64,000 nt of DNA, taken from Phlebiopsis flavidoalba. Lineage: Eukaryota; Basidiomycota; Agaricomycetes; Polyporales; Phanerochaetaceae. The number at the start of each line of letters is the position of its first letter. Position 1 is the first letter of the stretch. The DNA lies in assembly GCA_035772785.1 (NCBI GenBank), contig JAOCPU010000007.1, forward strand, positions 624,001 through 688,000, in the 5' to 3' direction. The translations under genes were made by a program, and so were the position numbers. The notes beneath the pieces are model-generated. The model ran no database searches. It was not told the DNA's origin and saw only the letters and a list, made by a program, of their open reading frames with translations. Positions 5,090-46,582 of this stretch are shown here, piece by piece.

Positions 5090-8000
5090 ATGTCCTTGAT
5101 CAGTGACCCAGAGTAAGCAATTCATCCCACTCACCCGCAAAGCGGTTAGCAGTCGTCTCACTCCTCGAAGTTTTCTCATCCATAGTATTCGTCTTCAATA
5201 CCTTCGCAATGTCGAGGATCCGTATGGGCCGCGTCTCATATCGCTGGACCCATCATATCGCTCCAACCCGTACGTGGTAGACGCAGGGCTCGCGGACGCG
5301 GAGCGGTGGCCCGAGCTTGCGATGCCTTCAAGTCCTGCACCAAGTGACGACGAATCCAACCCGCCACGGCCCAGACCGGGCGCAGGGCCCTTCTGGGTGC
5401 CACGGGCTTGAAGTACACGACAACAATCCTGGGACCAACGCGGACAGGCGCACTTGGGCTGCGTGTCTCTGGCAAGCGTGCTTCGTTGTCTGCATCACGA
5501 CGGCAATCTGTACGACGGTCTGTGTCTCAACCCCCCGTCCTGCAAGAGACATCAGAGAAAGACGAGGCGGACGCGACGCCGACGCTTCCCTCGTCTGCGT
5601 CCCCACGTAAGACGGATACCGGTAGGCTCATCGCAGAGGTAGAGATCAAGGTCGATGAGGCGTCGCCGGTGGATATGGAGCCCGGACCTGGAGTCGGGCT
5701 ACCGTCTTCCTCGTCAGCGTCGACTACACCCGCCGCAAGCGCGAGTACAAGCGCCAACCCTCCACCGCCGCCCGCGAACATCCCCATTCCATTCATACCC
5801 AAGTTTCGGGGTGCAGCCGAGATGGAAGCGCGAAGACAGTTACGAATGCGGAATCGTGTTCCACCCGGGGGTGCGCCGAGAGCTCAAGTGTCCGCCCCTG
5901 CGTATCTGGATCCGGAGATGTCGTCTTCGTCTTCGTCGTCGGCACTTTCTATCTCTGACGTTGAAGACCATGTTATTCCCGAAGGAGATGAAGTAGCCGA
6001 CATCCGACTCTGATGATCTAGATGACGAAGACAACGTTGGTGGTGCCGCCGTGGACATCATGGGCGACGATATGTTTGATCCGTTAGTCCTGTGCTCATT
6101 CCGCAAGGATTGATTTGATACTGACAAATTACTTTGCAGAGAATTTTGCAGGTAGCCGTGGCACTATGCTTGATGATATGTCTGATGGCATATCAATCAT
6201 GTCGGGCTCACAGTCCATGACATCTGCCTCAGATTTCTCAATAACACACTCATCGTTACCCCACATCAGCAGCGTTTTCGCAATAACAGCAGTCGCCTGA
6301 GCCCAGTACGCGAGAGCCACACAAATGAAGAAAAGTCGACAGAAGTAACACCTGAACGTGCCTTCGAACATAACGTCGACTCCTATTTTGAGATGGTCAC
6401 CCCGCCACCGCCATCTGACAAGGGTGCACGAGACAATGCAGGCAGGCAGCCGCACCTCACAATCCCTCTAGCATCCGCCGCCCCAGCCCTACACTCTCCC
6501 TCTAGCAGTAGCCTCTTCACACGCCGCCCCGTCCAGCCCGCAAAACCCGGCAAGTCCGCGCTCACGGCAATGCTAGCGTCTGAGAACGACGAAGAGTCTG
6601 AGAACCCATTCGCAGAGTTTTACAGCGCCATTTCTGGACGTTCCGAACCGGATAGCATGAGCGTACAGGTGTTCTTCCCGCATGCGATAAAGCCAGCCAA
6701 CGAGGCTATGAAGCTGAACGTCAGGAGGGATGCAAGCATGGAAGAGGTTCTCGGGTTTGCACTGTGGTCCTATTGGGAGGAAGGTTGGCTGCCGAAAATC
6801 GACGAGGGCTTGAACGGGGAAGAGGATCCGAAGTGGGGCACGGTGTGTTCTGCGCTTGGGTGGATTATGAGGATCGCAGAGGATGACGGAGAGGTTGATG
6901 AAGATTATCCTAGTGGGTGTCAATGACTATTGCTTTGTGTCGCGCTGAAGGTTTGCAGTACCGGACCGTACACTCAAGGTTCCGAAATTCGCCATGAGCG
7001 CATTTTGCGGTACTGAAAGCGAATGAGCATCAAAGTATGTTTTCTGTCCAAACGCGCCCCTTTTTGATTCTTAGACCCTCCGACAGTACAGCAAAACAAG
7101 ATCACCGAATCCAAGATCCAACGTCGCCGCTCGCGCATCGTCCTGAAGAAGAAGAAATCTGCCGAGCTTTTGAAGAGCAGCGGTCCGGTCATTGGCGGAC
7201 TTGCCCTTCCCGAGCAAAATGTCCTCGGCATGAGTGCCAGTACCGGTCCTGCGTCGATGCTAGGCTCGTCACTTGGGCTGTTCCCAAGCTCGTTTTGGAC
7301 CGTCGTCCATGCAAGGGCCCGCCACAGTTCTTGCGAATCCGCATTGCGGATATGGCGGATGCCGGACACGTGTCGACCACCATCCAAGGCGTGTGCGTAT
7401 ATCCGCTGTTTTTGTCTCATAGACCATTCATTGAAGGGTGCAAAAACAGACACGGCGGCATGTACATGGCCGAAGTACTCGACGCAGTGTGCTTGAAGCG
7501 CAAACTGAGCAACCCCAAAGAATACGCGCTCGTGCTTGACCTCAAGCCTGTCAAGTTGTTCATCCCATTGGACAGAACAGTCAAGAGTTTGCAGGGCAAA
7601 CGTGACTTGATGCTCATTAAGAAGAGCATGTTGCAGACTTATGGTGTCGATATGGGTAAGAGGATCACAGGGAGGTCGTCGGATCCGAACGGTAAGTGAA
7701 TGCTCCTGTGGGGTTATGTGGCTAGTTTTTGACAATGAAAACCGTAGCATCAATCTTCAAGAGGGCGACAGAGGCAACAGCAGCAAGCAGCTGTGCTCGA
7801 TTATACCACTGCTTACAAGGTCAGCTTCCAGGATGATCATGTTGTGTTGAGACTGATACTCACGTAAACCCTTTACAGCGCTTTACTGTGTATCGTAAAG
7901 TGCCCATGCTTGTCACACGCAGTGCCCGACTGTTTAGCTATTGACGGTGGATATATTCACGTACGATGCATAATGACAATGTCCGGGTTCTACACTGACT

Positions 8001-23899: not shown

Positions 23900-26346
23900 T
23901 ATGGCCGGGATTTCTGGACAAGGGGATGGAGGCCCTCGATAGGGCTGCGGATTCACGTGTCGTTGGCTGTCGTCATCGGGACAAACAAATATGGTGGCCA
24001 ACACAGGAGCTGCGCCTATACCAAACTGCCTTGGCCCTATTGTGGTGACGGTTTAGACAAACTGTTGAAGACAATACAAGCTTCCAAAGCTCTACAGGTA
24101 TTTGGTCTTTTGTGGTCTGTGGCTTTTTAACAAGAGGCTGGGCTGACTCGAGTACAGAAAAAGTGCTCTGGACTTATAAATACCTGTCGTGAGCTCCAGA
24201 GGTTCTTCAGACAAACCGGGAAGTCATTGGACTTACAAGCCTTGAGGATTCTACTCTCTCCAACACTATTGGGTATGTGGCATAGTGACTATACCGCTCA
24301 GACCCTCTCTCTGATTATCAATGTCTAGCGTAATTGAAGACGCCCAACAGACCTTAGTCCCGTACACGAGGATGAAACCGCTTCAAAGCCATAAGTACGT
24401 TCCACGGTTCGTGAGCGTGTGTGGTCATGAGGCGCTAACGCGGAGCAGTGCAGAAAATGGGATGAGGAAGGATATTGAGCGTCAGGAGTCGAGAGTTAAG
24501 GACGAGCTCCAAATTTACAAAGTGCGTGGAGCGGTCTCCTCTGGTTCAAGGTGTCCTGATCAAGGTCTAGTTGAGACAAGAGCAGGAGGTCCTCTCAACT
24601 GTTGAGGAAGCGAACGATATGTCCAAGATGCATGGCAGACGGCTAGAAGTTATGACTGTTGACGTGCAAGCGACGGTGCAGCAAACTACCGGGACATTTA
24701 ACAGCGTCGTAGGGTGGGTCTTAGAATCCCACTCTGGCAATAAGTACGGGTCGTCATCCGAATCCCAGTCTAGGAGGTTTGTGTGTCCCGGTCGGCACCC
24801 GACAATCCCAGTCTAGCGATGAGTTTGGGTCGTCGTACTATGTACTACCTCTCCACGCCATCAATGGGCCTATCCCAGACTACATCCCTCCCGGCTATCC
24901 GTCAGAAACTCTGCGCGCGCTGCCACAGCAATCACCACCAGCCCCGCAGCAAGATGGTATTAGGACGCGATAACCCCGTAGAGGAGATTCCTAGGAAACG
25001 CTCAATGGTCCAGCGCTGATGACAGTCTTGGGTCTCAAATCGCCTCGAATAACTGGATCGCTCCGCGCAATCGCTACTTGGCGCTGGCTCAGGTAAACTT
25101 CCCTGCCTGAGTGGCCTAGTATAGTCATTGTTTTTTGGACGATTTCTACTAGGGTCCTGATTCGCTTACCCCGAGACTCGGTCGAGAGGCACGTGAAATG
25201 GGGCATGAAGGTGAGGGGAGACGACGTCTTGGCTTTGGGTGTGGCTAACGTATTGAATATGGGTGGGTATCAAGAAGGCGAGCTCGAAATCTGGTCCCAC
25301 CTTCAGCACTCGCATGCGTGTCCCACTCTTGGGTGCCATGGAGTTTTGGCTCCCTCAAAATGGGTTTCCACCTAGGCTTGGTGAGATGAATTACGACATC
25401 ACGTGTTTCGCACGCATACTTACACTAATCCGCTAGGTTTCTCCGTATTACAAAAATCGCAATGTCGTCGAGTATGCCGCTGCCATTCCGCATTTCCAGA
25501 GTAATTTTAACAATTTGCTTGCAGCTATGTCAACACAAACCCGGGTGTAAATCGCTTCCAACTCGTAAGTTCATTTTCCTGACTCCCATGATGATGTCGC
25601 TCACCTTCATGTAGTATGTAGACTTTGCTTTGGGAATGGAATATTTGCACAGTCCAGAAGGTCGCTCACGGTGATGGTAAGTGCCCCTGACTTCTCGTGT
25701 AGTATGTTGCTAATTCAATCTTCCAGTCCGAGGGGTACGCATTTCTTCCGTCTACTAATCTCCGCCGTTGTTTTGCTGACATGATCATTTTCTATCTCTA
25801 GAGACAGCATCTTGATCAATGACGAGGTGTGTGACATTGGTCGCTGCGTTTGCTACTCATCCTGGAGTCCTCCACAGGGACAAGCCGTGATGAGCGACTT
25901 CCACATGTCGCGCTTCGTCGACATCAAGATCGCCCTACGACCCCGTGACTGCGAGTCCGAATACGAGGCAGAACTGGCGCACTGGCGTGCCCCCCGAGCT
26001 GATAGTCGACTACCGTCCCCCGAATCTCAAGAGCGACATCTACTCGTTTGCGCAGACCTTGTACGAGATCGGCACGGGCAAGAAGCCCAATGCACGCGGA
26101 ACGGGCATGCGCAGGCGGGATGTGAGGGCGATGATGGCCACAGCTCAACGATGGACTCCACCCGAAAGAGGCCTCCGCGCAATGTGTGGTTCCCGGACGA
26201 CGTGTTGGGCTCTCATGGAGCGCTGCTGGAACCACAACCCCGACGAGCGCCCCAAGATTGACGAGTGCCTCGACGTTTTTTGCGCAAGGCGAAACGAGCG
26301 ATACCTCAGCGAACAGTCGCAAAAGTCGAGCGAGGTCGCCGAGTAG
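23900..26346 (+). CDS. TKL-type protein kinase with N-terminal helical region and altered DFG motif
   Basis: The start is not fixed. The N-terminal part (about 24040-24620) is helical and charged, with LINTCRELQRFFRQTGKSLD and a Glu/Arg coiled stretch, resembling the helical adaptor regions before basidiomycete TKL kinases. A Pro/Ser/Gln linker follows (24700-24970). The kinase domain begins after 25190. The N-lobe has ELEIWSHLQHSHACPTLG (about 25280-25335), then VSPYYKNRNVVEYAA (25437-25480) and VDFALGMEYLHS (about 25620). The catalytic loop HGD-VRG-DSILINDE is built across two introns (25667-25828). The activation segment has AVMSDFHMSRF in place of DFG, then HWRAPELI. The C-lobe has KSDIYSFAQTLYEIGTGKKP and CWNHNPDERPKIDECLDVF, stop 26344-26346. 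The catalytic Asp is kept, but the Lys after HGD is Arg, the Mg-binding Asn is Ser and DFG is DFH, so activity is doubtful. Confidence 0.7.
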
Positions 26347-31549: not shown

Positions 31550-33446
31550 CTAGGCCTGCACCTTCTCCTCGACGCTCGCGCGTAGGGGCGCTGCCCTTGA
31601 AGGGAAGGGCCCTGGGCGGGGACGTCGACGACGTGGGTGTGCGTGTGGTGCGGCTCAAGTGCGCGGGCCGCCGGTGGTGGCGGCGTGCTGCCGTGCGTGT
31701 GCGTGTCGTCGTGGAACGCGTGGTGCGCGCCCCGCGTCGAGCCCGACGTAGTCGTACGCGAACTCGCCCATCTCCGCGTCGTCCATGCCGAGGATCCTCC
31801 GCCTCCTCGTCGCACCGCATCCGGCACCCCGGGATGAAGTGCATGATCCACAGGATCACCGTCTGCGCTGCGTCAGTGAAACATTAGATGAAGGGGAGGG
31901 AAGGGGGACCCACGGTCATGACGAAGGAGTAGCCGAGCCCGGACATGCTGTCCGCGAGCTGGTACGCGAGCTGGATGTAGTGGTGGTCGAGCCACCCGCC
32001 GGGGATGACCGCGATGCCGTCAAAGCCCGCGACGCTCGCCTGCGCGAACAGGCCCGTGAGGAGGTTGCCCACGATGCCGCCGATCGCGTGCGACGCGAAA
32101 ATCTATGCGCTGTCAGCGTGGGCTATTTTCTTTTAATGAGGGGGACGCACGTCGAGGCAGTCGTCGTAGCCAAAGAGGAACTTGAGCTGCGTCGCAAAGT
32201 TGCATACGGTGCCGGCCATGAAGATCCGAAGAGCACCGCCGCGGCTGTAACCATTGTTTAATGGAGTGGTGGAGGGAGGGGAGGGGGGACGTACGGGAGC
32301 CGACGAAGCCTGAGCCGGGGGTGATGGCGACGAGGCCCCGAGATGGCGCCTGAGCAGAAGCCGACGGCGGACCATTTGCGCTCGAGGCGGTAGTCCTGGA
32401 AATGCGGTTAGCGGGTGTAAGCGGGAGGGCGGACGGGGCGCGCACCCAGAACATCCAGGTGAGGCCGCCGACGGAGGCGGCGAGGTTGGTGACGATGCAC
32501 GCCTGGATGACGGCGCGGAGGTTCGCGGAGAGCGCGGAGCCGCCGTTGAAGCCGAACCAGCCCCCGAACCAGAGGAAGAGACGGTGCCGAGGACGACGTA
32601 GGTGGTGTTGTGTGGCTTGTACGCGAGGCGCTCGGTGCCGTAGCAGCGGCGGCGGCCGAGGTAGATGGAGATGGCGAGCGCGGCGGTGCCGGAGGAGATG
32701 TGGACGGGCGTCCCGCCGGCAAAGTCGAGGCCGCCCATGACGAAAGAAGGACCAGCCGTTGGAGTTCCACGTCCAGCCAGCACGCGGATCGGGTCGTACA
32801 CGATCGTCGTCCAGATGAACGTGAAGACGATTGTGGGGCCGAGCCGCGCGCGCGCTCAGCGACGGCGCCCCAGCGCGAGGATGGGCGTGATCGCGGCGAA
32901 CATGAGCTGGAAGACGCAGAAGGCGATCGACGGGATGCGCGAGCTGCCCCGATGGACGGCTGCGCGAGCACGCCTTGAGGCCAAAGTAGCCTGCGCGGCG
33001 GTCAGCACGGGTAATATTTGCAGCTGGGGCACGTACGGAGGTCACCGATGTACGCGCTGCCGGTCTCGCTGAAGGCGAGCGAGAGAACCCCAGAAGAACC
33101 ACTGGGGGGCGCGGGGTGAGCGTGTGATGTATGCGCGCGCACGCGGTGCGTACCTGGAAGGAGGACGACGGCGACGACCATCATGGAGAGCCAGATCATG
33201 GGAGAGCCGCGTTCTTGCGGCGGAGGAGACCTGAATAAAAGAAGCCGACGCCGGGGATCATGAGCCAGACGAGGGCGGTGGAGGGCGAGGACCCAGGCAA
33301 TGTCGCCGAGGTCGTACACGACGGGCGTGTCTGGGGGGCGCCGCGGGGTCGTGGTACACGAGCGAGCCGGCTGCGGGGAACGGGTGAGCGCGACACAAAC
33401 GGCAGCGAGAAAGACACTTGCAGTCATCGTAGGTGACGTTGACCAT
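31550..33446 (-). CDS. AMT1: Ammonium transporter (AMT/MEP family)
   Basis: Plasma-membrane ammonium uptake channel/transporter with 11 membrane helices, trimeric in the family. The start MVNVTYDD is at 33444-33446, followed by a short intron and AGSLVYHD. Then come LMIPGVGFFYSG, the family signature at the pore entrance, LSMMVVAVV, ETGSAYIGDL, WTWNSNGW and DFAGGTPVHISSG (about 32695-32735), which carries the first pore His. Further on are ALAISIYLGRRR, FGFNGGSALSANLRA, TPGSGFVG, HAIGGIVGNLLTGLFAQA (about 32050-32100), with the second pore His, and YQLADSMSGLGYSFVMT. The cytosolic tail has DDAEMGEFAYDYVGLD, the conserved regulatory segment, and a His/Thr-rich end, stop 31550-31552. At least six introns and many one-base frame breaks are present, all in a very GC-rich context. 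GATAA-type sites lie upstream. All pore residues are present, so I take it as functional with sequence errors. Confidence 0.9.
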
Positions 33447-36101: not shown

Positions 36102-38188
36102 ATGTCGGCTTCTCCACTTGCCTCCGCCCACCCTGTCGCCGCGGCCAGACGACGAGGCCGCGCCGCTGCTCGACGGCGAGCGCACCCGCCGCATACGGCA
36201 CCTCCGCGCCCGCTGACGTCGCACCAAGCCAGCGGGCTCGCCGCTCACAAATTCGTGAGTACCGCGTCCCCCTCAAATGAGTAGGCAGAGGAGCTGAGGA
36301 AGGCGCGAGATTGTGCCGATGTTCGATAGGCATCTTCCTCGCTGCGATGGACGGGACGGTAAGTCGTCGCGGCGTCGTACGCGCGCATCGGGAGCGAGCT
36401 GGCGCCATCTCCAGAACACGAGCTGGATCGCGACAGGGTACATGCTCATGCTCACGAGCTTTCCAGCCGCTGTACGGCAAGGTGCGTGACGTCGTGCCCT
36501 CGCTCGTGCGCGTGCTGAATGAAGGGCGTAGTTGAGTGATATCTTTGGAGGATGAAGAGCTGTTTGGTGTTTTCGTATGCCGTGTTTTGCGCTCGGGTGT
36601 CTGTTCTGTGGCCTCGCGAGGAATATGACGGAGCTGGTGGCGGCGAGGGCGTTGGCGGGGGTTGGAGGGGGGGTGATTGGTGGAGGGTGGTATGTCGACG
36701 TGCGTCGCTTGAGCCCATTGCGGAGCGTGTATTGACGAGAGATTCTAGCGGTTTGCGTCTATCATCATGTCCGACGTCGTAACCCCTACGCGAACGAGGT
36801 ACATGGCAAGGTGCGTCCACCACGGAAACGATTGAACTACACACCACTGACCGCCCACAGGTGTAGCAAACATGGTCTTCGCGTCCGGCCAAGCAGCTGG
36901 CGCCCCCGCTCGGCGGCTACCTCGCCGACACCCTCGGCTGGCGCGGTTCCTTCCTCCTCCAGGTGCCCCTCGCGCTCGCCGCGGTCCTCGTCCGCCGCCC
37001 TCGCGCTGCGCCTGCCCGCGCGGCCCGCAGAAGACCTCCGCGCGAAGCTGCGCCGCGTCGACTTTGCCGGCGCCGCCGCGCTCGTCGCGGGCGTGTTCGC
37101 GCTCCTGCTCGCGCTCGACCGCGGGTGGCAACGTCGCGTGGGCGGACGCGCGCACGCTTGGGTGCCTTGCCGCGGCGCTGGCGCTCCTCGCGCTGTTTGC
37201 GTGGATCGAGCTGTCGTGTCGCGGCGGAGCCGTTTGCGCCGCGCGAGATCGTCGGGAGCCGTGCGCTTGCGGCGAGCTATGCGGCGAATTTTCTTTGGCG
37301 CGGGTACGCCCACTGCGCTTGCGTTTCTTGTGACGCTGTTTCTTCCAGGCTGTGCGTGGCGCGAGCGCGGCGGACGCGGGCGTGGTGCTGCTTGCTGCGG
37401 TGCCGTTTTGGGGTTGGAGGGAGTTTGTTTGGTGGGCTGATGATGCAGCGCACGGGGAAGTATTATTGGGCTTACGGTTATAACGCTGGGTATGATGGTG
37501 CTGGGGCAGGTGCTGGTTCCTGTGTTTTCGGGGATTTGGGTGTATTTCGTATGCCGGACTCGTTGTTGGTCAGTGCTCAGAACTTTGGGTCTCGTATTTC
37601 TGCTGACGGTGTTTCTAGGCTTGTGCTTTAGTGGATTTGGAAGGTCGGTATGCGCTCTTCAGTGGTTCGTGGAATGTCTCTAATGTTGATGCTGATTATA
37701 GGGACTGGAATAACCACGACCTTGATCTCGCTCATAGCCAACGCAGGGCCAGAAAACCAGGCTGTCGCCACAGCCGGCACGTACCCTCTCATCCTGCATT
37801 TACCTTCTTGCTCACTCCCTACACAGTATCTTACCTCTTCAGATCCCTCGGCACAGTCGTCTGGCTCTCGCTCTCCACAACACTCATGCAAGACACCCTG
37901 CGGCACCTCCTCTACAAACGACTCACAGGCGAAGACGTCGACGCGGTCCGCCCCTTCTCCTCTTCCCCGCCACATGCACTGACGAGGCCTGCAGATCATC
38001 CGCCCGCGTGCGCGAAAGCCTCACGTACATCGGCGACGAGCTCGAGCCGCACGGTGCGCGCGACGGTCGTCGCGGCGTACGCGGACGCGATCCACGTCGC
38101 GATGGGCTTCCTCTGTGCCGTCAGCGTCTGCGCGGTCGTCGCGGGGCGTTGCATCTTCATCAAGGAGGTGCCGCTCTCGAAAAAGTGA
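36102..38188 (+). CDS. MFS transporter, 14-helix drug:H+ antiporter / vacuolar basic amino-acid type
   Basis: The likely start is MSASPLASAHPVAA (36102), followed by the acidic dileucine-like DDEAAPLLDGERT common in vacuolar members of this family. Helix 1 has IGIFLAAMDGT, continuing across an intron into VVASYARIGSEL, WIATGYMLMLTSF and QPLYGK. MFS motif A, SDIFGRK-like, is split by an intron near 36480-36540. Next are NMTELVAARALAGVGGG and SDVV, then FAAGQAAGAPLGGYLADTLGW (about 36870-36930), the antiporter motif region. The second half shows LVAGVFALLLALDRG, ALALLALFAWIEL, PFAPREIVGSRALAASYAAN and GGSLFGGLMMQRTGKYYW. The C-terminus reads FRSLGTVVWLSLSTTLMQDT and VRATVVAAYADAIHVAMGFL, ending EVPLSKK, stop 38186-38188. 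Many one-base breaks are present; the substrate is unknown. Confidence 0.82.
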
Positions 38189-38889
38189 CCGCGGCTGCTG
38201 TTTTGGATTATTGTTTTTTTTATATGGTAGATGCGCTGTTTGTGGTCGAATTCGGAGCGCGTGCTGGTGTGTTGCCTGCGCAAAGCGGTAGCGAACGCGG
38301 GTAAGTTGTTGCCTGCCTACAAAGCGGCTGCGACGATTCGGAGGGCAGCGTCTGCACCCGACCAAGAAAAGGGGTTGTTGCGACGCCTCCGTCGCCTACG
38401 CGCCCGTCAAGAAAGTGGCTGTTGCCTCGACCTCGTAGGCAATACTCGACCAGTAGGCAGTGTTTGCTCCTAGAGAAAGCGAGTCGTGACGTCTCGGCGG
38501 CAGCCTTTGTTCTCCGCTTACGTGGTATGATGATAGCTGCCGCACAGACTCTCGCTTCAATGTTCGTCTCACGGCTTATGCGACTATTGTCTTTCTCCAC
38601 GATGCAAGCCCCGTACATTGTACTCGAGGTTGCTCGCCGTCGTCATCGAACGGTACGCCACATACACCGGCCCGGGCGACTACTACGTACATAGAAGTTG
38701 GTCCGTCATCACATCTCTGAGCCCCCCCCCTGTGTTTTGGCGGCTAGCATTACGGCAACGTCGTGATGCCTGTTTGCGGCGAGAAGACGATGGTCTGCAG
38801 CGTGCCCTCGGGTATAACTGCCAGGCAGACCGCCCGTCCCCCGCACTGTACACTTTCCGCTTTTTCTCTCGGGGGGGGGGGGGCGTACG
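38189..38889. promoter_or_regulatory. Intergenic region; 5' part of duplicated unit A and a 13-base G run
   Basis: It holds the 3' flank of the MFS gene and, from about 38480, the upstream part of the duplicated unit that recurs from about 41605. Conservation of this non-coding part between units suggests it includes the pseudokinase promoter. A G run (13) at 38871-38883 sits just before the assumed start. Confidence 0.4.
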
Positions 38890-41415
38890 ATGCTGCCGGC
38901 TCAACAAGAACACGCAAGGCCATGAGATGGTCGGGGCGGAGTCCTTAGGTGTCCGGTCTGTCCCTCTTCGCAGAGGCGTCGGCAAATTCCGGGGGCCGAT
39001 ATACTACCCAAATTGGTGAAGTCGATATATGAGAAGGTGAAGAAGGCCAGGGAGCTCAAGGTGTCGTCCGAATTCCTCTTTAGAAAGTCGACATGGTTAC
39101 TGAACCCCAATAGGAAGAGCTGTTGGGGGTTGCACAGAGAATGTGGGGCGCTTCTAGAGGCTTTCGATGCCCATTGCCAGTATATGCTGCGTCGGGATTG
39201 GACAGAGATGACTATTGCCCCCGTCGAGGACACACACGACAGTGAGTTCCTGTAGCTTCTGCACGCGTCGCCCCGCTGACGGTACTCGCCAGGGTCCTGG
39301 AGTTTGTGTCTCGAAAAACTCGATGGCCTATTTCTCTCATGGCTTTTTAAACGATTTTGTGCGCATTTATCCTGAGTCCTTAGTGCTTGGCTACTGTTTT
39401 GACCTTGAACGCAGTCCTCAGACAGAGCGTGATCAAGGACGACCCTATAGCAGTTTTGCAACAAGAAAGATAGCCGAGGCGATCGAGCTTTTGCAGGTGA
39501 GGATGTGGCGTAAACTACTATACTATCCCTCTAAATGTTCAGATAAAGCTCCCTCCAGGTTCGAAACGGTTGCAAAGCCATAGAACAAGGCGCAGATACC
39601 AATGACAAGCTAAACCTCATCGTGGAGCTGTTACACCGTGGACAGAATCCTGAGCGCTTCCCCGAGGTATGTCGCCTGAAGGGGAGTCGTCAGAAGCCAA
39701 ACGAGACACAACAGGTGATCAACGCTCTTCTTCAGTAACAAGCATATACTCATGGATACTACGTTGTCTTGCAGGTGATCCTCGATATGGACGCCGACAA
39801 GGATAGACCGGACGCGGATCTACAGGTTGCAGGCATGAAGGTCTCCCGTGCGCAGTTTCAACGTCATATACTCTGATCTCGTCGACTATCTCGAAACCCT
39901 CGAGAAGTACACAGGGAAAGGCCCAGAAAATACCAACCTGGGGAACCGTGTCTCTCTTGTAAATAAGAGTCCCCTAACGGAGGGGACCCTATACACGTAC
40001 CTGTATCAAGGCATGTATTGTGGGAAGCTGGTCAGTGGCCTTTTGCACCTCCTTTGCGGCCTCGCTACGGTGTTGTTAAGGTGGCGGTCAAATCTTTGAA
40101 GGCACTCAACAACGACGAGGATATCCTCGAGAGAGGAAAAAAGGTAGATCTAATTTGCCACTGCCTGTGGAGATTTTTACCGAGAGCCCGATAGCGCTTT
40201 CTGCAAGAGTTTGGGGTGGGTGGTCGACACTGCAGCACTCTAACATCCATCCCTTTCTTGGCTGGACTGACGCGTGTACTGGCTTAGGATATGTGGCTAT
40301 GGTCAGTCGGCCGGTGATGATCAGCGGCCACTCACTGGTAAAGCTGATGCGTCGTTACTATTCAGGTTTCTCCCTGGCGAGAGAATGGAGACATAATGCG
40401 GTAAGATTCATTTATTCCATTAATCCTTTGTATATGTAATCTGAATTATTTATTATCAGCTACTGTAAGCGGTATCCAGACGCGAATAAATATCACCTAG
40501 TAAGTATCACATACTCAACTTTAATCATTCATTGCGTTGGCGACAAGAACTCACTGGACATAGCTTGCAGGTGCAGCAGCTGGGCTACAGTACTTACACG
40601 GAGTCAAGAACATAGTTCATGGCAGTAGTAAGTCCCTCGATTTACGTGTTGGTTGCTCTACTCTAAGTTTTCAACAGTAAGAGGGGTGCGTCACTCGGCG
40701 ACATCAGGCGTTACATAAACTACTTTACTGACAGAATATGTAGAGCCCAACATACTTATCACAGATCAGGTAGCTACACTCATTCATGAGTATTTTCTCT
40801 TTGGGGGCTCACCAAAGCTGGGCAGGGCGAGGCCGTCCTCACTGACTTTTCCGTTTCGGAAATCTGCAAGGACCTCACCTCGACCATGTCTGAACTCTCC
40901 CACACACGCACTCCCTGCCTTCAGTGGCAAGCCATCGAGGTTATCCTGGAAAGCAAGAGCCCGTCACTGAAATCGGACATCTGGTCTATGGCCATGACTA
41001 TGCTGCAGGTGTTCACCATGAAGAAACCATTGGTGGGAGAGATCAAGGCAGACTATCTGATCATCACCTTCTATCAGTCCAGGCAAAATCGCCCGAAGAG
41101 GCCCGGGATAACCTGTGGGTGACGGATGCGATATGGGGGTTTATGCAGCAGTGCTGGCAAACCGAGCCTGAGCTACGTCCGAATGCCTCTCAAGTGCTGG
41201 AAACCCTCCAGCAAGCGGAAGCGGCGTATGTTCCACCTGATGCAGATTCTTCATAGTACTATGGTTCTCAGCATCGTGTATTCTTCATCACAACGGACAT
41301 CTCGGACATTTGTACATACTATGTAAACAGCTCTGATGTAATGACAAGGCTTTGATTTGCTTGAGCCTGCATGGCGAAGCATAGAACCTTCCTATTTAGG
41401 TAGTTTGATGTCCTG
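38480..41415 (+). repeat. Tandem duplication, unit A (about 2.9 kb)
   Basis: This unit and unit B match along their whole length with the same order of upstream region, gene and 3' flank. Marker words include CGTGACGTC (38485 and 41606), ACGTCATATA (39861 and 43001) and the shared 3' flank ACCTTCCTATTTAGG (about 41388 and 44528). The offset grows from about 3,120 to 3,140 through small indels. Units are clearly diverged, so the duplication is not recent. Confidence 0.85.
38890..41256 (+). CDS. Pseudokinase with N-terminal helical bundle, MLKL-like layout (copy A)
   Basis: The start near ATG 38890 is tentative. The N-terminal region reads GADILPKLVKSIYEKVKKAR, LHRECGALLEAFDAHCQ and ATRKIAEAIELLQVR, a helical, coiled pattern like the MLKL-N/HeLo-like adaptor regions before fungal kinases. 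A linker follows with LIVELLHRGQNPERFPEV and VILDMDADKDRPDAD. The kinase part starts with FNVIYSDLVDYLETLEKYTG and NLGNRVSL, then TEGTLYTYLYQGMYCGKLV in place of a Gly loop. It continues with VAVKSLKALNNDEDILE (Lys kept), GVWSTLQHSNIHPFLGWTD, GLQYLHGVKNIVHGS (HRD Asp replaced by Ser), NILITDQ and AVLTDFSVSEI (DFG is DFS). The C-lobe has SLKSDIWSMAMTMLQVFTMK and GFMQQCWQTEPELRPNASQV, stop 41254-41256. With no catalytic Asp or Gly loop it should not phosphorylate; a binding or switch role is inferred. Frame breaks occur around 40040-40200. Confidence 0.7.
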
Positions 41416-42011
41416 CAGAAAATTGTATGCCAATGAGTGCTCGTGGTTGTCTTTAGAGGCTGAGGGAAGTATTCTTAATACTGACTTATGCTTATTTTAT
41501 GACGAATTACGAACGGGTGTGGTACTGTTGGAAAAGAGCTGTCTTATGCCGAAACTGAAGCGGGCGCGCCGATGTGGTGTTGTTAGAAAGCCTCGGATCG
41601 TGACGCGTGACGTCCAGGCTAGCCGCCTTGTTCTCGCTTGACGTGTTGTGATGAGGGTTGCATAGACTCTAACCTCAATGTCGCCGTCGGAACTATAAGT
41701 TTTCATTGTCCTCCAACGCGACGCAAGCATTGCGCATTGTACTCGATGGCCCCTCGCCGTCGTTACACATTACGCCACATTTCCCAGCCCCGGGCGACTC
41801 CAGAGTAGAAATTGGTCCGTCATCTCATCTCCGAGCCGTGTTCCTTAGCGGTTAATGGCATTACGGCAACGTTGTGATGGCGAAGCTCTTGACCGCGAGA
41901 AACAATGGCCTGCAGCGTGCCCCGAGCCGGGCCATAAGTGCAAAGCGTGCTGCTCGTCTCCCGCGCATTATTCTCTGCTTCTCTCTCTGTGTATGTTTAT
42001 ACCTCACAACA
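41257..42011. promoter_or_regulatory. 3' flank of copy A and upstream region of copy B
   Basis: Non-coding stretch between the two duplicated genes. About 190 bases (41415-41605) are not part of the repeat and mark the junction of the two units. The remaining part matches the region upstream of copy A. Confidence 0.4.
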
Positions 42012-44555
42012 ATGCTACAGCTTAACGAGGACACGCGGGATGTGATAGTGGGCACAGCGAAGCTCATGGGGGCAGCTTTTGCGTCCTTGTCTGGGCACAG
42101 AGGCGGTCGCAGATTCCGGGGGCCGATGCTATCCCAAAAACTCGTGGAGATGATAATGAGAGGGTACAGAAAGCCAAGGAGATCAAGGTGTGTTCTGAGC
42201 CTTCTAAAGGTCGCTTTGGTCGCTGAAATCGAGTAGCAAGAGCTGAGGGAGATCAGTGAGAGGTTGCAACGAGCTCCTGAGAGCTTTCAAACGACCATTG
42301 CAAGTTTCTGAAGAGTCGGAACATCGAGATCGTTTCACATCACCGTCAAGGACACAGACAAGAGTGTGTGAGTATTGCAAACTGCGGGGGTAGTTCGTTC
42401 ATCTCATAGTGCTATCCTAGGGTTTCTGGAGTTTGCTCTCAAAACAATCGATCGATATATACCCTCTAGCTTATGGAGACGAATCAGTACGCGCAAACCT
42501 CCCTGGTATTTACTGTTACCATAATTAACATTGGAGATAGTCACTTTAGGCAAGATCAGTGGGACGATGTGTAACAGCGCCTGTAACAAAAGAGGATAGC
42601 CCGGGCGATCGAAATTTCTCCAGGTGCGGGATGTGGCGTAAACTGCTACACTTTGCCTCGGGTCCCAATACATGTTTCTCCAGATCCGGACTGGTCGTTC
42701 TACAGGCCATACAGGCAAGGTGCAGAAATCCTTGGGGCGACAAATGAAATAAATGAAGGGGGGTCCGAAAAACTGCTGGACAATGCTGGGCAGCGTTCCG
42801 GGCGCTTACGTAACATGTCACCCGAGGAGGGAGCCGCAGACGCGACCAAGGCGCATCAGGTGCCTGGACCCCTCCACCTGCCATGAACTTGTGCTAATCA
42901 TTTCTGCGCAGATGATCCTGGATATGGAAGCCGACAAGGATGGGCCGGACGCGGAACTACGGGTCGCAGGCGTGAAGGTCTCTCTCCGTGCCCAAGTTCA
43001 ACGTCATATACTCTGATCTTGTCGATTATCTTGAGACTCTCGAAAAGTACACCGGGAAACGGCTAGAAAATACCAACCTAGGGAATCGCGTCTCACTTCC
43101 AAACAAGAGTCCCGTAGCGGAGGGGACCCTGTACACGTACCTGTATCAAGGCATGTATCATGGGAAGCTGGTCAGTGACCCTTCGTACCGCCTTTGCGCC
43201 TACGCTCACGATGGGTAGTTGTTCAGAGGAGGTGGCGGTTAAATCTTTGAAGGCGCTTAACAACGACGAGGATATCCTCGAGAGAGGAAGAAAGGTAGAT
43301 ATGATTCGCCACTACTGTGGAGAATCGAGATGTTTTACCAAGAGCCCAATAGCGGTTTCCTGCAAGAGTTCGGGGTGTGGTCGACGCTGCAACATTCTAA
43401 CATTCAGCCCTTTCTTGGCTGGACCGACGCGTGTACTGGGTTGGGATATGTGGCGTTATGGTCAGTCAACGGTGACGATCACTTACCGGTAAAGCTGATG
43501 CGTCATTGCTACTCAGGTTTTCTCCCTGGCGAGAGAATGGAGACATAATGCGGTACGATATCATTCAATCTGCTGCATATATCATCTGAATTATTTTCAG
43601 CTACTGTAAACGGTATCCAAACGCAAATAAATATCATCTAGTAAGTATCACATCCTCGACTTGAACCCTTGAAATTGCTACGGAAACTCACTGGACATAG
43701 CTTGCGGGGGTGCAGCAGCTGGGCTACAGTACTTGCACGGGGTCAAGAATATAGTTCACGGCAGTAGTAAGTCTTGTGATTCACGCTCTGTCACTTCACT
43801 CTGACTTTTCGATAGTAAGAGGGGTGCGTTGCTCGGCCACAGGCATTTGCATAGACCGTTTTACTGACAGAATGGGCAGAGCAACATACTTATCACAGAT
43901 GAGGTAGGGTACATAGATTGTATACTGTCTGTCATCCAGACTCAACAAGACTGCAAGGGCGAAGCTGTTCTCGCAGACTTTTCTGTTTCCGCGATCTGCA
44001 AAGATCTCACATCCACCATGTCCGCACTATCCCACACGCGCACCGCCGTCTCTACAGTGGCAAGCCATCGAGGTTGTTATAGAAAGCAAGAGGCCGTCGC
44101 TAAAAATCGGACATCTGGTCGATGGCCATGACCATGCTGCAGGTCTTCACCATGAGGAAAACCACTGGAGGGAGAGATCAAAGCAGACTATCAGATTTAC
44201 CGCTTCTATCAGTCTGAGCTGAATCGCCCGAAGAGGCCTGCGAATAACCCGTGGGTGTCAGATACATTGTGGGGGTTTATGCAGCAGTGTTGGCCAAACC
44301 GAGCCTGAGCTCCGTCCGAATGCTTCTCGAGTGCTGGAGACCCTCCAGCGCGCGGAAGCGGTGTATGTCCCATCTGATGCAAACTCTGTATAATATCATG
44401 GTTCTCACCATCGTGTATTTTTCGTCATAACGGATTCCACGGAAATTTGTGCAAATTATGTGAATAGCTCTGATGTAATAACAACGCTTTGATTCGCTCG
44501 AGCCTGCGCTCTATAGTGAAGCACAGAACCTTCCTATTTAGGCAGTTGGATGTCC
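41605..44555 (+). repeat. Tandem duplication, unit B (about 2.95 kb)
   Basis: Second copy of the unit described for 38480-41415, in the same orientation. Relative to unit A it carries extra single bases in short homopolymers (for example near 44102, 44160 and 44294) that break the kinase frame. Confidence 0.85.
42012..44393 (+). CDS. Pseudokinase with N-terminal helical bundle, MLKL-like layout (copy B)
   Basis: The start MLQLNEDTRDVIVGTAKLM (ATG 42012) is clearer than in copy A and is followed by GAAFASLSG, GADAIPK and ERVQKAKEIK, the helical N-terminal region. The linker contains MILDMEADKDGPDAELRVAG. The kinase part has FNVIYSDLVDYLETLEKYTG, AEGTLYTYLYQGMYHGKLV, VAVKSLKALNNDEDILERG, FGVWSTLQHSNIQPFLGWTD, GLQYLHGVKNIVHGS, NILITDE and GEAVLADFSVSAICKDL. 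The HRD Asp to Ser and DFG to DFS changes are the same as in copy A, so they pre-date the duplication and were retained. After 44040 three single-base insertions in homopolymers break the C-lobe (SDIWSMAMTMLQVF, ELRPNAS), ending at a stop near 44391-44393. It is either drifting toward a pseudogene or indel-affected. Introns match copy A in position. Confidence 0.65.
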
Positions 44556-44579
44556 CAAAACTGTACTCTAGCCAAATTT

Positions 44580-45252
44580 TCGAGGAGATCAACCTGCGCG
44601 CGGACGATCATGTTGTCCACATCGCTTTTTGCACATTCCACCCCTCCCGACGTTTCAACAAAAGATGGGCCAACCGCTAAAGGCAGAGCCCGAAGAGACA
44701 AGAATACCCGCCCGCGCCGCAGCCCAAGCCAGTTGACGCCAAAGAGCTCTCACAAATCCGCGATGCTATTTTCCAAGCACCGCAAGGCCATTGCATGGCA
44801 GGTGCATCGCTGGCCGCTAGACAAGAGAGTTGTAGACCGCCGGACAAAGATACACCTGCCCAGGTCATACCGCGCGGCGGACGGAGAAGACGTCAAGACT
44901 GTCTGGGCGGGTGGTCCGACCTGAACCAGGTCGTGCACAACCACTACAATCGAGGCCCTCGGTGACGAGGCGCCGCCCGCGCACGTTGCAAACTTTGTGA
45001 CGCCAGATAGTATTACAGTCAAGAGGTGAGTTGTTGGGTTTGTACAGGGAAGATGCAATGAGTAATATGTGCTAGGGCACGAATACCTCGGCCCTGATCC
45101 AAGGATAGCGGGGTACCGCTTTGATCATGTCGGAGAGGTGCATAATCAAGTTTTGGGACAATTTTCTGCAAGACCAGTGGATGGGCAAGAGCAAGTGGCG
45201 GTTTGACGTGAAGATGACGGAGGAAGGGAAGTGGGTGGAGGTAGACGACTAG
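44580..45252 (+). CDS. Unrecognised protein
   Basis: I do not recognise this gene. Readable pieces in order are EINLRADDHVVHIAF (44584-44630), a Pro/Lys linker, VDAKELSQIRDAIFQAPQG (about 44720-44780), EALGDEAPPAHVANFVTPDS (about 44950-45010), and after an intron EYLGPDPRIAGYRFDHVGEV (about 45080-45140). The end is FLQDQWMGKSKWRFDVKMTE followed by EGKWVEVDD, stop 45250-45252. The pieces are in different frames, joined by one-base shifts and one probable intron (donor GTGAGT near 45025). Acidic and aromatic C-terminal residues suggest a compact soluble protein. It converges on the aldolase gene, with about 126 bases between the two stops. Confidence 0.42.
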
Positions 45253-45378
45253 AGGGCGACGGAGAACACACAAAAAGGACCTATCTTTTCTGGTGGGACA
45301 TTGTATTTCGGGCATCATCATTCAGTATCATACTCGCACACTCACGTTAGGCTTCTGCGACCGCATGACTGCGCGCAT

Positions 45379-46582
45379 TCAATATCCAAATTCCCTTCCT
45401 CCGACGCTTCCGCCGCCCGTCGCGGCGGCCAAGTGCGACTTGACGGCATCTGCTATTGCAACCGACGTCCGAGGTAACATTGATCTACGCGCCACCGCCA
45501 ATGTGATCAATAGACGATAGCCAGGAACGCTGCGCTATTCTTACCATATCAAAGCCTTCTTTTGCCCGCCTTGCAGCTTGTTCACCGCGGATATGCAATA
45601 GAAGGCACTGCATGATACACAATGTTCAATGGTCACTTAAGTGTGAGTATTACAGTGATGTCCTCGGGGATAAGTACCGACTGACCATGAGCAGTTCTTG
45701 CCAGCGTCATGACCACCTTCAGGATTCGCTGGATCGCTTCTTCAATTTTAGGATGCGGGTCTGGGTTCGGTGGAGGGTAGCCCAATGACAAGGAGAGGTC
45801 GTAGGGTCCGATAAAGATACCATCTTTGACAGACGGTTCAGGTACGACTATCGCCGGAAAGCCAGGAACTTACCCAATCCTTCGACGGCACAGATGGCTT
45901 CGAGGTTGTCATACGCCTCGCGGTCTCGACCTGGACCATGACAACTATTCCCTCGTTCGCGGACTTGAGGTTTCGTTGGCCGACGATGTGAATGCCCCAG
46001 GAAGCCTGGGTGAATGGGCTGCCGAACCCACGAATGCCCCGCGGGGGGAAATCGGTGCGAAGCTGATACCGACCGATTTGACCTGTTCCGTCGTGGACAC
46101 CTTTGCGCTGCCCGTGAGCCACTTCCGGTGTTCCACTTCTGATAACGCACCATGGGCACTGAACGACGCCCCGCGCGCCGAGCGTCCAGTGCATACTTGA
46201 TCTGCCAGCTTCGCGCTGTCGGCATCGACCCCGGGGCCCGTCGCGGGCACTGCGCACGAGCACACTGGGCGCGTTGGGGCCCAGGAAAAATCCAGGACAC
46301 GGCCCAGAGCGATGGTCTCTGCCGCACCCGGGGTGAGGGGGATAAGTCCGTGTTCGCAGTCGATAGTCACCGCCAGGCGAGATGTCAAAGAGGCGATGAC
46401 GGCAGCGGCAAGGGTACGCGCACGCAAAGGGTCCTGGGAGGTGTGAGCCATGCGCCACAAAAGCTGGCTTGGAGGCTCTGAAGGCCTGGAGTAGCGGATG
46501 CGACGGGCCATTGTGTGGCAGCGTAGAGCGGTCCAAGGAGCGCGGGACAGCTCTGGCGACATAGGGCGTTTTGGGCGAACAT
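45379..46582 (-). CDS. HpcH/HpaI family aldolase (class II, metal-dependent)
   Basis: TIM-barrel aldolase of the HpcH/HpaI/citrate-lyase-beta-like family, which splits or forms 2-keto-3-deoxy acids using pyruvate and a divalent metal. The start is probably at 46580-46582 (MFAQNALCRQS), but other upstream ATGs are possible. The core has WVTIDCEHGLIPLTPGA-like residues (about 46370-46330; the His is the catalytic base of the family). Then come VRVPATGPGVDADSA, the substrate loop GIRGFGSPFTQASWG, VVMVQVETREAYDNLEAI with the metal-binding Glu, and DGIFIGPYDLSLSLGYPPPN with the metal-binding Asp. The C-terminus reads PKIEEAIQRILKVVMTLAR, AFYCISGEQAARRAKEGFDM and INVTSD, ending REFGY, stop 45379-45381. 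Frame breaks lie near 46480, 46250 and 46130. Introns occur in the last third. Confidence 0.85.

What the first reader, a model, noticed from the sequence alone, without database searches (positions are those of the whole stretch)
38480..44555. Tandem pair of MLKL-like pseudokinases
Two directly repeated units each code for an N-terminal helical region followed by a kinase fold that has lost the HRD Asp (HGS) and DFG (DFS) and shows no clear Gly loop, while keeping the VAVK lysine. The same losses in both diverged copies imply the pseudokinase state was ancestral and kept. Helical bundle plus pseudokinase is the layout of MLKL, the membrane-permeabilising executioner of necroptosis, and HeLo-like/MLKL-like domains occur in fungal cell-death systems. 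A cell-death or signal-switch role is inference.
Basis: partly seen in the sequence, partly recalled or inferred. Interest (0 to 1): 0.75.

Follow-up and report, generated by a model that had tools for sequence, protein, structure and literature searches.

The report
Paired fungal pseudokinases, possibly MLKL-like
Two neighbouring copies of a fungal gene carry a kinase-shaped domain that has lost a key catalytic residue yet is kept nearly unchanged by selection, which suggests a working switch rather than a dead gene; whether its front end kills cells like the necroptosis protein MLKL is not shown.

Summary
The tandem repeat is real (unit A about 38485-41413, unit B about 41606-44555). Each is a multi-intron gene with a kinase fold (spliced A: PF07714 2.2e-26). 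Both read HGS for HRD and DFS for DFG and keep the VAVK Lys, catalytic-loop Asn and DFG Asp. Kinase exons: dN 0.063, dS 0.457, omega 0.137 (bootstrap 0.086-0.209), no stop in 298 codons; 8 of 8 intron borders kept. So the pseudokinase state predates the duplication and was maintained. Frame breaks (1 in A, 5 in B) do not prove decay: similar ones occur in CCT5 and an ammonium transporter of this assembly. 10 of 10 relatives aligned, and 8 of 8 genomic paralogs read of 10 matched, keep the Asp. A third paralog, C (about 25.2-26.35 kb), shares an 8-base microexon and reads HGD/DFH. The MLKL link is unproven: N-terminal exon 1 is coding (38/76 identical) but has no Pfam, MLKL or database match and only a low-confidence helical model. 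Best reading: a maintained pseudokinase switch, perhaps nucleotide-binding.

The parts
38485..41413 (+). Tandem unit A (outer limits of three matching pieces, upstream region to 3' flank)
   Evidence: Self-BLAST of 37001-46000 against the window; alignment A1
41606..44555 (+). Tandem unit B, starting 3121 bases after A in direct orientation
   Evidence: the genome search by DNA returned only this place (1 candidate scored)
38983..39240 (+). Unit A, N-terminal coding exon (QIPGADILPKLVKSIYEKVKKARELK...); start codon not located
   Evidence: Frame-break-tolerant alignment to unit B: score 134, best of 60 shuffles 49, 38/76 identical; model helices 26-43, 48-55, 66-93 at pLDDT 45
42110..42356 (+). 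Unit B, counterpart of the N-terminal exon, aligned with 6 frame steps and one stop
   Evidence: a 40-residue in-frame match
39857..41256 (+). Unit A, linker and pseudokinase gene body: exons 39857-40030, 40081-40143, about 40185-40301 (start not settled), 40366-40400, 40460-40499, 40564-40627, 40678-40685, 40746-40769, from 40826; frame break at 41105; stop TAG 41254-41256
   Evidence: Spliced reading; PF07714 E 2.2e-26 with X at the unsettled exon start and at the break
42997..44393 (+). Unit B, linker and pseudokinase gene body, same 8 introns; frame breaks at 43706, 44045, 44102, 44158, 44294; stop TAA 44391-44393
40090..40092 (+). Unit A, VAVK lysine codon (B: 43241-43243)
   Evidence: positions of GTGGCGGT
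40618..40626 (+). Unit A, HGS in place of HRD/HGD (B: 43757-43765)
40678..40685 (+). Unit A, 8-base microexon TAAGAGGG completing HGS-IRG (B: 43816-43823; C: 25727-25734 TCCGAGGG)
40844..40852 (+). Unit A, DFS in place of DFG (B: 43976-43984)
25150..26346 (+). Third paralog C, kinase part (start approximate): HGD 25667-25675, microexon 25727-25734, DFH 25896-25904; frame breaks seen by eye; its N-terminal part upstream (about 24047-24208) only weakly resembles A
   Evidence: N-terminal likeness 57 vs best of 60 shuffles 51

Best explanation
Units A and B are tandem paralogous genes for a signalling protein with a fast-evolving N-terminal (probably helical) domain and a TKL/FslK-type pseudokinase domain. 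The kinase domain has lost the catalytic Asp but keeps the Lys, Asn and Asp that hold nucleotide and metal. It most likely works without phosphotransfer, as a conformational latch: nucleotide binding, or phosphorylation of its Ser/Thr-rich activation segment by another kinase, changes its contact with the N-terminal domain, which then acts (oligomerises or meets a partner). Shown: duplication, gene structure, shared residue losses, purifying selection on the kinase fold. Inferred: nucleotide binding, latch action, and the output; cell death is one possible output and is not shown.
For: A/B kinase exons: divergence 23/314, 19/314, 75/316 at codon positions 1, 2, 3 against 126/416 in introns; NG86 dN 0.063, dS 0.457, omega 0.137 (0.086-0.209), 298 of 303 codons usable, no stop in either when B is read on A's frame. 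GT and AG kept at all 8 introns in both. HGS, DFS and AIE identical in both copies. In the alignment with 10 relatives (the 3 and the best 7 of the 35) the query alone departs at the catalytic Asp, the DFG Gly and the APE Pro. Of 10 loci outside A and B that the kinase of A matched, 8 could be read: all 8 keep the Asp, 7 of 8 the DFG Gly. VAVK Lys, catalytic-loop Asn (A HGSIRGPN, B HGSIRG-N) and DFS Asp kept. N-terminal exon 1 is coding in both.
Against: Frame breaks: 1 in A and 5 in B in the kinase exons; B's N-terminal exon needs 6 frame steps and a stop in about 250 bases, denser than the controls, so B may be decaying now. The control genes were not drawn at random. N-terminal dN 0.35 / dS 0.70 shows weak constraint. 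No gene was found elsewhere with the same HGS/DFS pair, so there is no ortholog to test. The A splice acceptor at 40184/40185 is not settled, and the start codons were not found. Loss of the catalytic Asp does not always abolish activity (recalled). No expression data.
Confidence: 0.55

Rival explanations
1. A fungal MLKL analogue: the N-terminus is a BaMLKL/HeLo-type four-helix bundle that permeabilises membranes, held in check by the pseudokinase and released by phosphorylation, perhaps by an active relative.
For: Layout N-terminal domain plus pseudokinase. The Goodbye/HeLo/MLKL_NTD-like superfamily is the most frequent among basidiomycete NLR N-termini (PMC9815663, passages), and a review says some HELL domains are joined to kinase/pseudokinase domains (PMC12881547, passage). 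Exon 1 model is helical. Third paralog C keeps HGD about 13 kb away.
Against: No Pfam match of exon 1 at E<=1, no PDB match to MLKL at E<=10, no database relative of the N-terminus at E<=10 among 122 candidates; pLDDT 45; DFG Asp kept, unlike mouse MLKL.
Confidence: 0.2
2. Recent pseudogenes: once constrained genes that are now losing their frames.
For: 6 frame breaks in the kinase exons of the two copies together; 6 frame steps and a stop in B's N-terminal exon.
Against: Same kind of 1-base break in CCT5, where residues 356|357 and 441|442 of the reference chain lie in different frames with 1 extra base, and in the window's ammonium transporter at 32580. Omega 0.137 and no stops in 298 codons. 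HGS/DFS predates the duplication, so it is not part of the recent decay.
Confidence: 0.15
3. Weakly active kinases: Asp loss compensated, DFS tolerated, so still enzymes.
For: Lys, Asn and DFx Asp kept; strong selection on the whole fold.
Against: Catalytic Asp, Gly loop and DFG Gly all lost together; 10 of 10 aligned relatives keep the Asp.
Confidence: 0.1

Closest known systems
Agaricomycete kinases of the FslK/TKL expansion (PMC3937382: abstract and first of two parts of Results read)
   Same: Tyrosine-kinase-like kinase fold (PF07714 here), multigene family in Agaricomycetes. From my own loci, not from that paper: HG-type catalytic loop and an intron just behind HGD(I)(K/H)G in L052, L054, L063.
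   Different: That paper calls FslK members complete and probably active; here catalytic Asp, DFG Gly and Gly loop are gone. Placement in FslK rather than TKL was not tested by a tree.
MLKL (vertebrate, with plant MLKLs)
   Same: N-terminal domain plus pseudokinase without the HRD Asp
   Different: No sequence match of the N-terminal exon to MLKL in the PDB; DFG Asp kept here; no known activating kinase; no membrane activity shown
BaMLKL / HeLo-like / Goodbye-like domains of basidiomycete NLRs (PMC9815663, passages)
   Same: Same division of fungi; helical N-terminal modules linked with cell death
   Different: Those are on NLRs; no Pfam match here; CDD MLKL_NTD could not be run
Tandem-kinase proteins P0005 (Suillus occidentalis), P0004 (unnamed source) and P0001-P0003 (Rhizoctonia solani)
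   Same: Same kinase superfamily; also contain a degenerate kinase-like domain (HGN with SGF; HGD with GFG)
   Different: Two kinase-like domains in one protein with the degenerate one in front (P0002 and P0003 break off inside the second); the IPGAD N-terminus was not seen in them

Membership tests
MLKL | N-terminal four-helix bundle homologous to MLKL 4HB/HeLo | tested here: inconclusive
   No Pfam hit at E<=1, no PDB hit to MLKL, exon 1 model helical at pLDDT 45 only; the whole N-terminus was not modelled
MLKL | Kinase fold without catalytic HRD Asp | tested here: met
   HGS in both copies
MLKL | Loss of the metal-binding DFG Asp (mouse MLKL, PMC10211241 passage) | tested here: not met
   DFS keeps the Asp in both copies
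MLKL | Switch phosphorylated by an upstream kinase; membrane permeabilisation | not testable with these tools
   needs biochemistry
BaMLKL / HeLo-like / Goodbye-like | Match to CDD MLKL_NTD or to Pfam HeLo/Goodbye-like profiles | tested here: inconclusive
   Pfam negative for exon 1 alone; CDD not available; only a piece of the domain tested
Agaricomycete FslK/TKL kinases | PF07714-type kinase domain with relatives in Agaricomycetes | tested here: met
   PF07714 2.2e-26; relatives named as Suillus, Mycena, Thelephora, Antrodiella, Calocera and Rhizoctonia, 26-33% identical in the alignment
Agaricomycete FslK/TKL kinases | Falls inside the FslK clade rather than TKL in a tree | not tested
   no reference FslK set at hand
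Agaricomycete FslK/TKL kinases | Complete catalytic motifs | tested here: not met
   HGS, DFS, AIE, no Gly loop
Processed or decayed pseudogene | No selective constraint on the reading frame | tested here: not met
   omega 0.137 (0.086-0.209) in the kinase exons, 8 of 8 introns kept; constraint averaged over the time since duplication, so very recent decay is not excluded

The most novel reading that the evidence does not exclude
A three-gene fungal necroptosis-like module: two MLKL-layout pseudokinase executioners (A, B) with fast-evolving N-termini, and beside them a paralog with the catalytic Asp intact (C) that could be their activating kinase, all three sharing a microexon-bearing ancestor. 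It would be an MLKL-style switch built from a fungus-specific kinase lineage, independent of animal MLKL, with nucleotide binding kept and catalysis lost.
Probability: 0.12. Interest if true: 0.75.

Novelty: new variant of a known kind. Interest (0 to 1): 0.4.

Why it matters
If right, this is a fungal pseudokinase pair whose loss of the catalytic Asp is older than its duplication and kept by selection, in or near a kinase lineage described as catalytically complete. It gives a tractable system for asking whether fungi built MLKL-like switches from their own kinases. It also shows that frame breaks in this assembly must not be read as pseudogenes without a control.

Tried and rejected
Considered and rejected: (1) genuine pseudogenes because of many stops and frame changes: most were introns; the rest resemble assembly-type indels seen in CCT5 and an ammonium transporter. 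(2) A and B as two haplotypes: they lie in tandem on one contig with dS 0.46. (3) A catalytic-loop Asp hidden by the splice choice: the other donor inside GGCAGTAGTAAG gives HGIRG, still without Asp (read by eye). (4) A likeness of A's third N-terminal exon (about 39547-39711) to B: alignment score 30 against best shuffle 41, not supported. (5) Likeness of C's N-terminus to A: 57 against 51, only suggestive.

Led nowhere: N-terminal search of the protein database (none of 122 candidates at E<=10); PDB search with the N-terminus (two chance-level hits); AF2 of exon 1 alone (pLDDT 45; no fold search was run on it because such a model gives meaningless matches). One search translated minus-strand chaperonin loci on the wrong strand; one search repeated two of the four (L030, L031), of which only L031 was followed up. 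Paper searches. The second AF2 job was not used: by the tool's description a spliced protein is not accepted, and single exons add little. The organism was not identified by name.

Full report
What was given.

The genome. The window is G000:C7:624001-688000 of a 36.3 Mb assembly in 129 contigs. Short introns and relatives named as Suillus, Mycena, Thelephora, Antrodiella, Calocera and Rhizoctonia point to a mushroom-type basidiomycete (grouping of these genera recalled); it was not identified further.

The repeat. A self-comparison gives three matching pieces: 38485-38807 with 41606-41922 (69.9%), 38971-39122 with 42098-42245 (72.3%), and 39771-41413 with 42908-44555 (80.7%). The starts are 3121 bases apart. 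A DNA search of the genome returned only this place (one candidate was scored, and common words are skipped, so absence of other copies is not proven). Exact-frame searches with a C-lobe piece found A, B and one weak further kinase on C15; with the N-terminal piece only A and B.

Gene structure. The many stops are mostly introns. Reading unit A with GT..AG introns of 41-64 bases gives one kinase protein, FNVIYSDLVDYLETLEKY...GKLVAVKSLKALNNDEDILERGKK...WSTLQHSNIHPFLGW...VSPWRENGDIMRYCKRYPDANKYHLLAGAAAGLQYLHGVKNIVHGSIRGPNILITDQGEAVLTDFSVSEICKDL...LQWQAIEVILESK...SDIWSMAMTMLQVFT. It matches PF07714 at 2.2e-26 over profile positions 28-258 of 258, with X at the unsettled exon start and at the frame break. 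An exon of only 8 bases completes HGS-IRG; it is present in B and, between introns at the same places, in the third paralog C. The start of the third kinase exon (40185) is the least certain border, and at the seventh intron two AG acceptors lie 2 bases apart. GT and AG stand at the aligned places of all 8 introns in both copies, 32 of 32 bases, while the introns differ at 126 of 416 sites.

Catalytic residues. Both copies: VAVK Lys kept; HGS (Asp lost); Asn of the catalytic loop kept; DFS (Asp kept, Gly lost); AIE for APE; Gly loop reduced to EGTLYTYLYQG. So the residues that hold nucleotide and metal are kept and the catalytic base is lost. I aligned 10 relatives, the 3 and the best 7 of the 35: the query alone departs at the catalytic Asp, the DFG Gly and the APE Pro. 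Three of the 10 (P0001-P0003) have themselves lost the DFG Asp (GFG) in the aligned domain, and in P0005 (Suillus occidentalis) and P0004 (unnamed) a second, front domain reads HGN and SGF. In the same genome the kinase of A matched 10 loci outside A and B at E<=0.01. I could read 8 of these 10, not all of one kinase group: all 8 keep the Asp (HGD, HRD, HCD, YRD or QD), and 7 keep DFG; the exception is C with DFH. One more locus, L058, which one search did not match, reads HGD with RFQ at the DFG place. One search scanned 20 kinase loci taken from the 63 matches.

Selection. At codon positions 1, 2, 3 the copies differ by 23/314, 19/314 and 75/316. Nei-Gojobori on 298 of 303 codons (5 touched by gaps dropped; the unsettled exon start left out): dN 0.063, dS 0.457, omega 0.137, bootstrap 0.086-0.209, no stop in either copy on A's frame. 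Intron divergence, 30.3% uncorrected, is of similar size to the synonymous divergence, 34.2% uncorrected. A copy free of constraint for most of the time would have raised positions 1 and 2. The N-terminal exon is different: 76 codons, dN 0.354, dS 0.696, so it is coding but evolves fast.

Frame breaks and the control. One search lists 11 indels inside the exons as drawn. Two lie in the unsettled start of the third exon, two cancel each other, one is met by the alternative acceptor, and six are frame breaks, 1 in A and 5 in B, assigned by which copy stays in the kinase frame. To see whether such breaks mean anything here, I looked at genes that must work. In the CCT5 chaperonin gene (L031), residues 336-356 and 357-393 of PDB chain 9fqr_Gs (CCT epsilon) lie in different frames with 1 base between them (bases 1926 and 1928 of the reverse strand), and so do 397-441 and 442-486 (bases 2236 and 2238; the match proper begins at 443). 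In this window, the ammonium transporter on the minus strand changes frame at base 32580: profile columns 109-198 in one frame and 198-243 in the other, with no room for an intron. That is 3 breaks in about 290 codons of control, against 1 and 5 in about 300 codons of A and B. The controls were picked after breaks were suspected in them, so the rate is not an unbiased estimate. Assembly error is the simplest cause. That CCT5 is single-copy here was not proven. Against this: B's N-terminal exon needed 6 frame steps and one stop in about 250 bases, denser than the controls, so a decaying B is not excluded.

The N-terminus. Exon 1 of A aligns with B as protein at score 134 against a best of 49 in 60 shuffles, 38 of 76 identical. 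It has no Pfam family at E<=1, only two chance-level PDB hits at E 1.3 and 1.5 and none to MLKL, and no database relative at E<=10 among 122 candidates. AF2 of exon 1 alone gives three helices with pLDDT 45. The likeness of the third N-terminal exon was not supported, and that of C's N-terminus only marginal. So the helical-bundle claim is plausible and not established.

The third paralog. C lies at about 25.2-26.35 kb in the same window and orientation. It has HGD, then the 8-base microexon TCCGAGGG, then DSILINDE and SDFH, with frame breaks seen by eye, one of them next to the HGD. The other genomic relatives looked at for this (L052, L054, L063) have one intron behind HGD(I)(K/H)G and no microexon (by eye). 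I infer, without a tree, that the microexon marks A, B and C as one group and that the loss of the Asp falls on the branch to A and B, while the DFG Gly is gone in all three.

How it works. The best-supported reading is a maintained pseudokinase that acts as a conformational latch on its N-terminal domain. The activation segment DFSVSEICKDLTSTMSELSHTRT keeps its Ser/Thr residues in both copies (B: DFSVSAICKDLTSTMSALSHTRT), which is where a switch phosphorylation would fall; that is inference. Cell death as the output is a rival at 0.2.

What is in print. FslK kinases are described as having all sub-domains and as probably active, expanded in Agaricomycetes (PMC3937382, abstract and first of two parts of Results). 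Basidiomycete MLKL-like domains on NLRs are described in PMC9815663 (12 of 23 passages). PMC12881547 (passages and section 18) states that some HELL domains are joined to kinase/pseudokinase domains. PMC10197012 (passages) reviews HeLo and MLKL in fungi. So the layout as such is known; I saw no paper in the listings of searches on a maintained HGS/DFS pair, but these listings are short and most subscription papers are not held.

Verdict. Filed as a new variant of a known kind (lineage-expanded fungal kinases), not as MLKL, because the DFG Asp feature is not met and the bundle is not established.

Noticed in passing
window 24047-26346: Third kinase gene C with the same 8-base microexon as A and B, catalytic HGD kept and DFH for DFG.
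   Followed up: partly
window 32113-33180, minus strand: Ammonium transporter (PF00909) that changes frame at 32580 without room for an intron; sign of assembly indels.
   Followed up: yes
L031 (G000:C12:305098-306620): CCT5 chaperonin gene with two 1-base frame switches shown; gene models of this assembly need care.
   Followed up: yes
window 36867-37631: MFS-type transporter gene (PF07690, 27.7 bits, below the 33.4 cut-off) next to unit A, by eye also split between frames.
   Followed up: no
window 6186-6926: CRIM domain (PF16978, Sin1) in an open exon.
   Followed up: no
L058 (G000:C54:234614-235060): Another HGD-type kinase-like locus that reads RFQ where DFG is expected, so perhaps a second kind of degenerate kinase in this genome.
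   Followed up: no
P0005 (Suillus occidentalis), P0004 (unnamed), P0001-P0003 (Rhizoctonia solani): Tandem-kinase proteins whose front kinase-like domain is degenerate (HGN with SGF, or GFG): degenerate kinase domains seem to have arisen more than once in this fungal kinase group.
   Followed up: no
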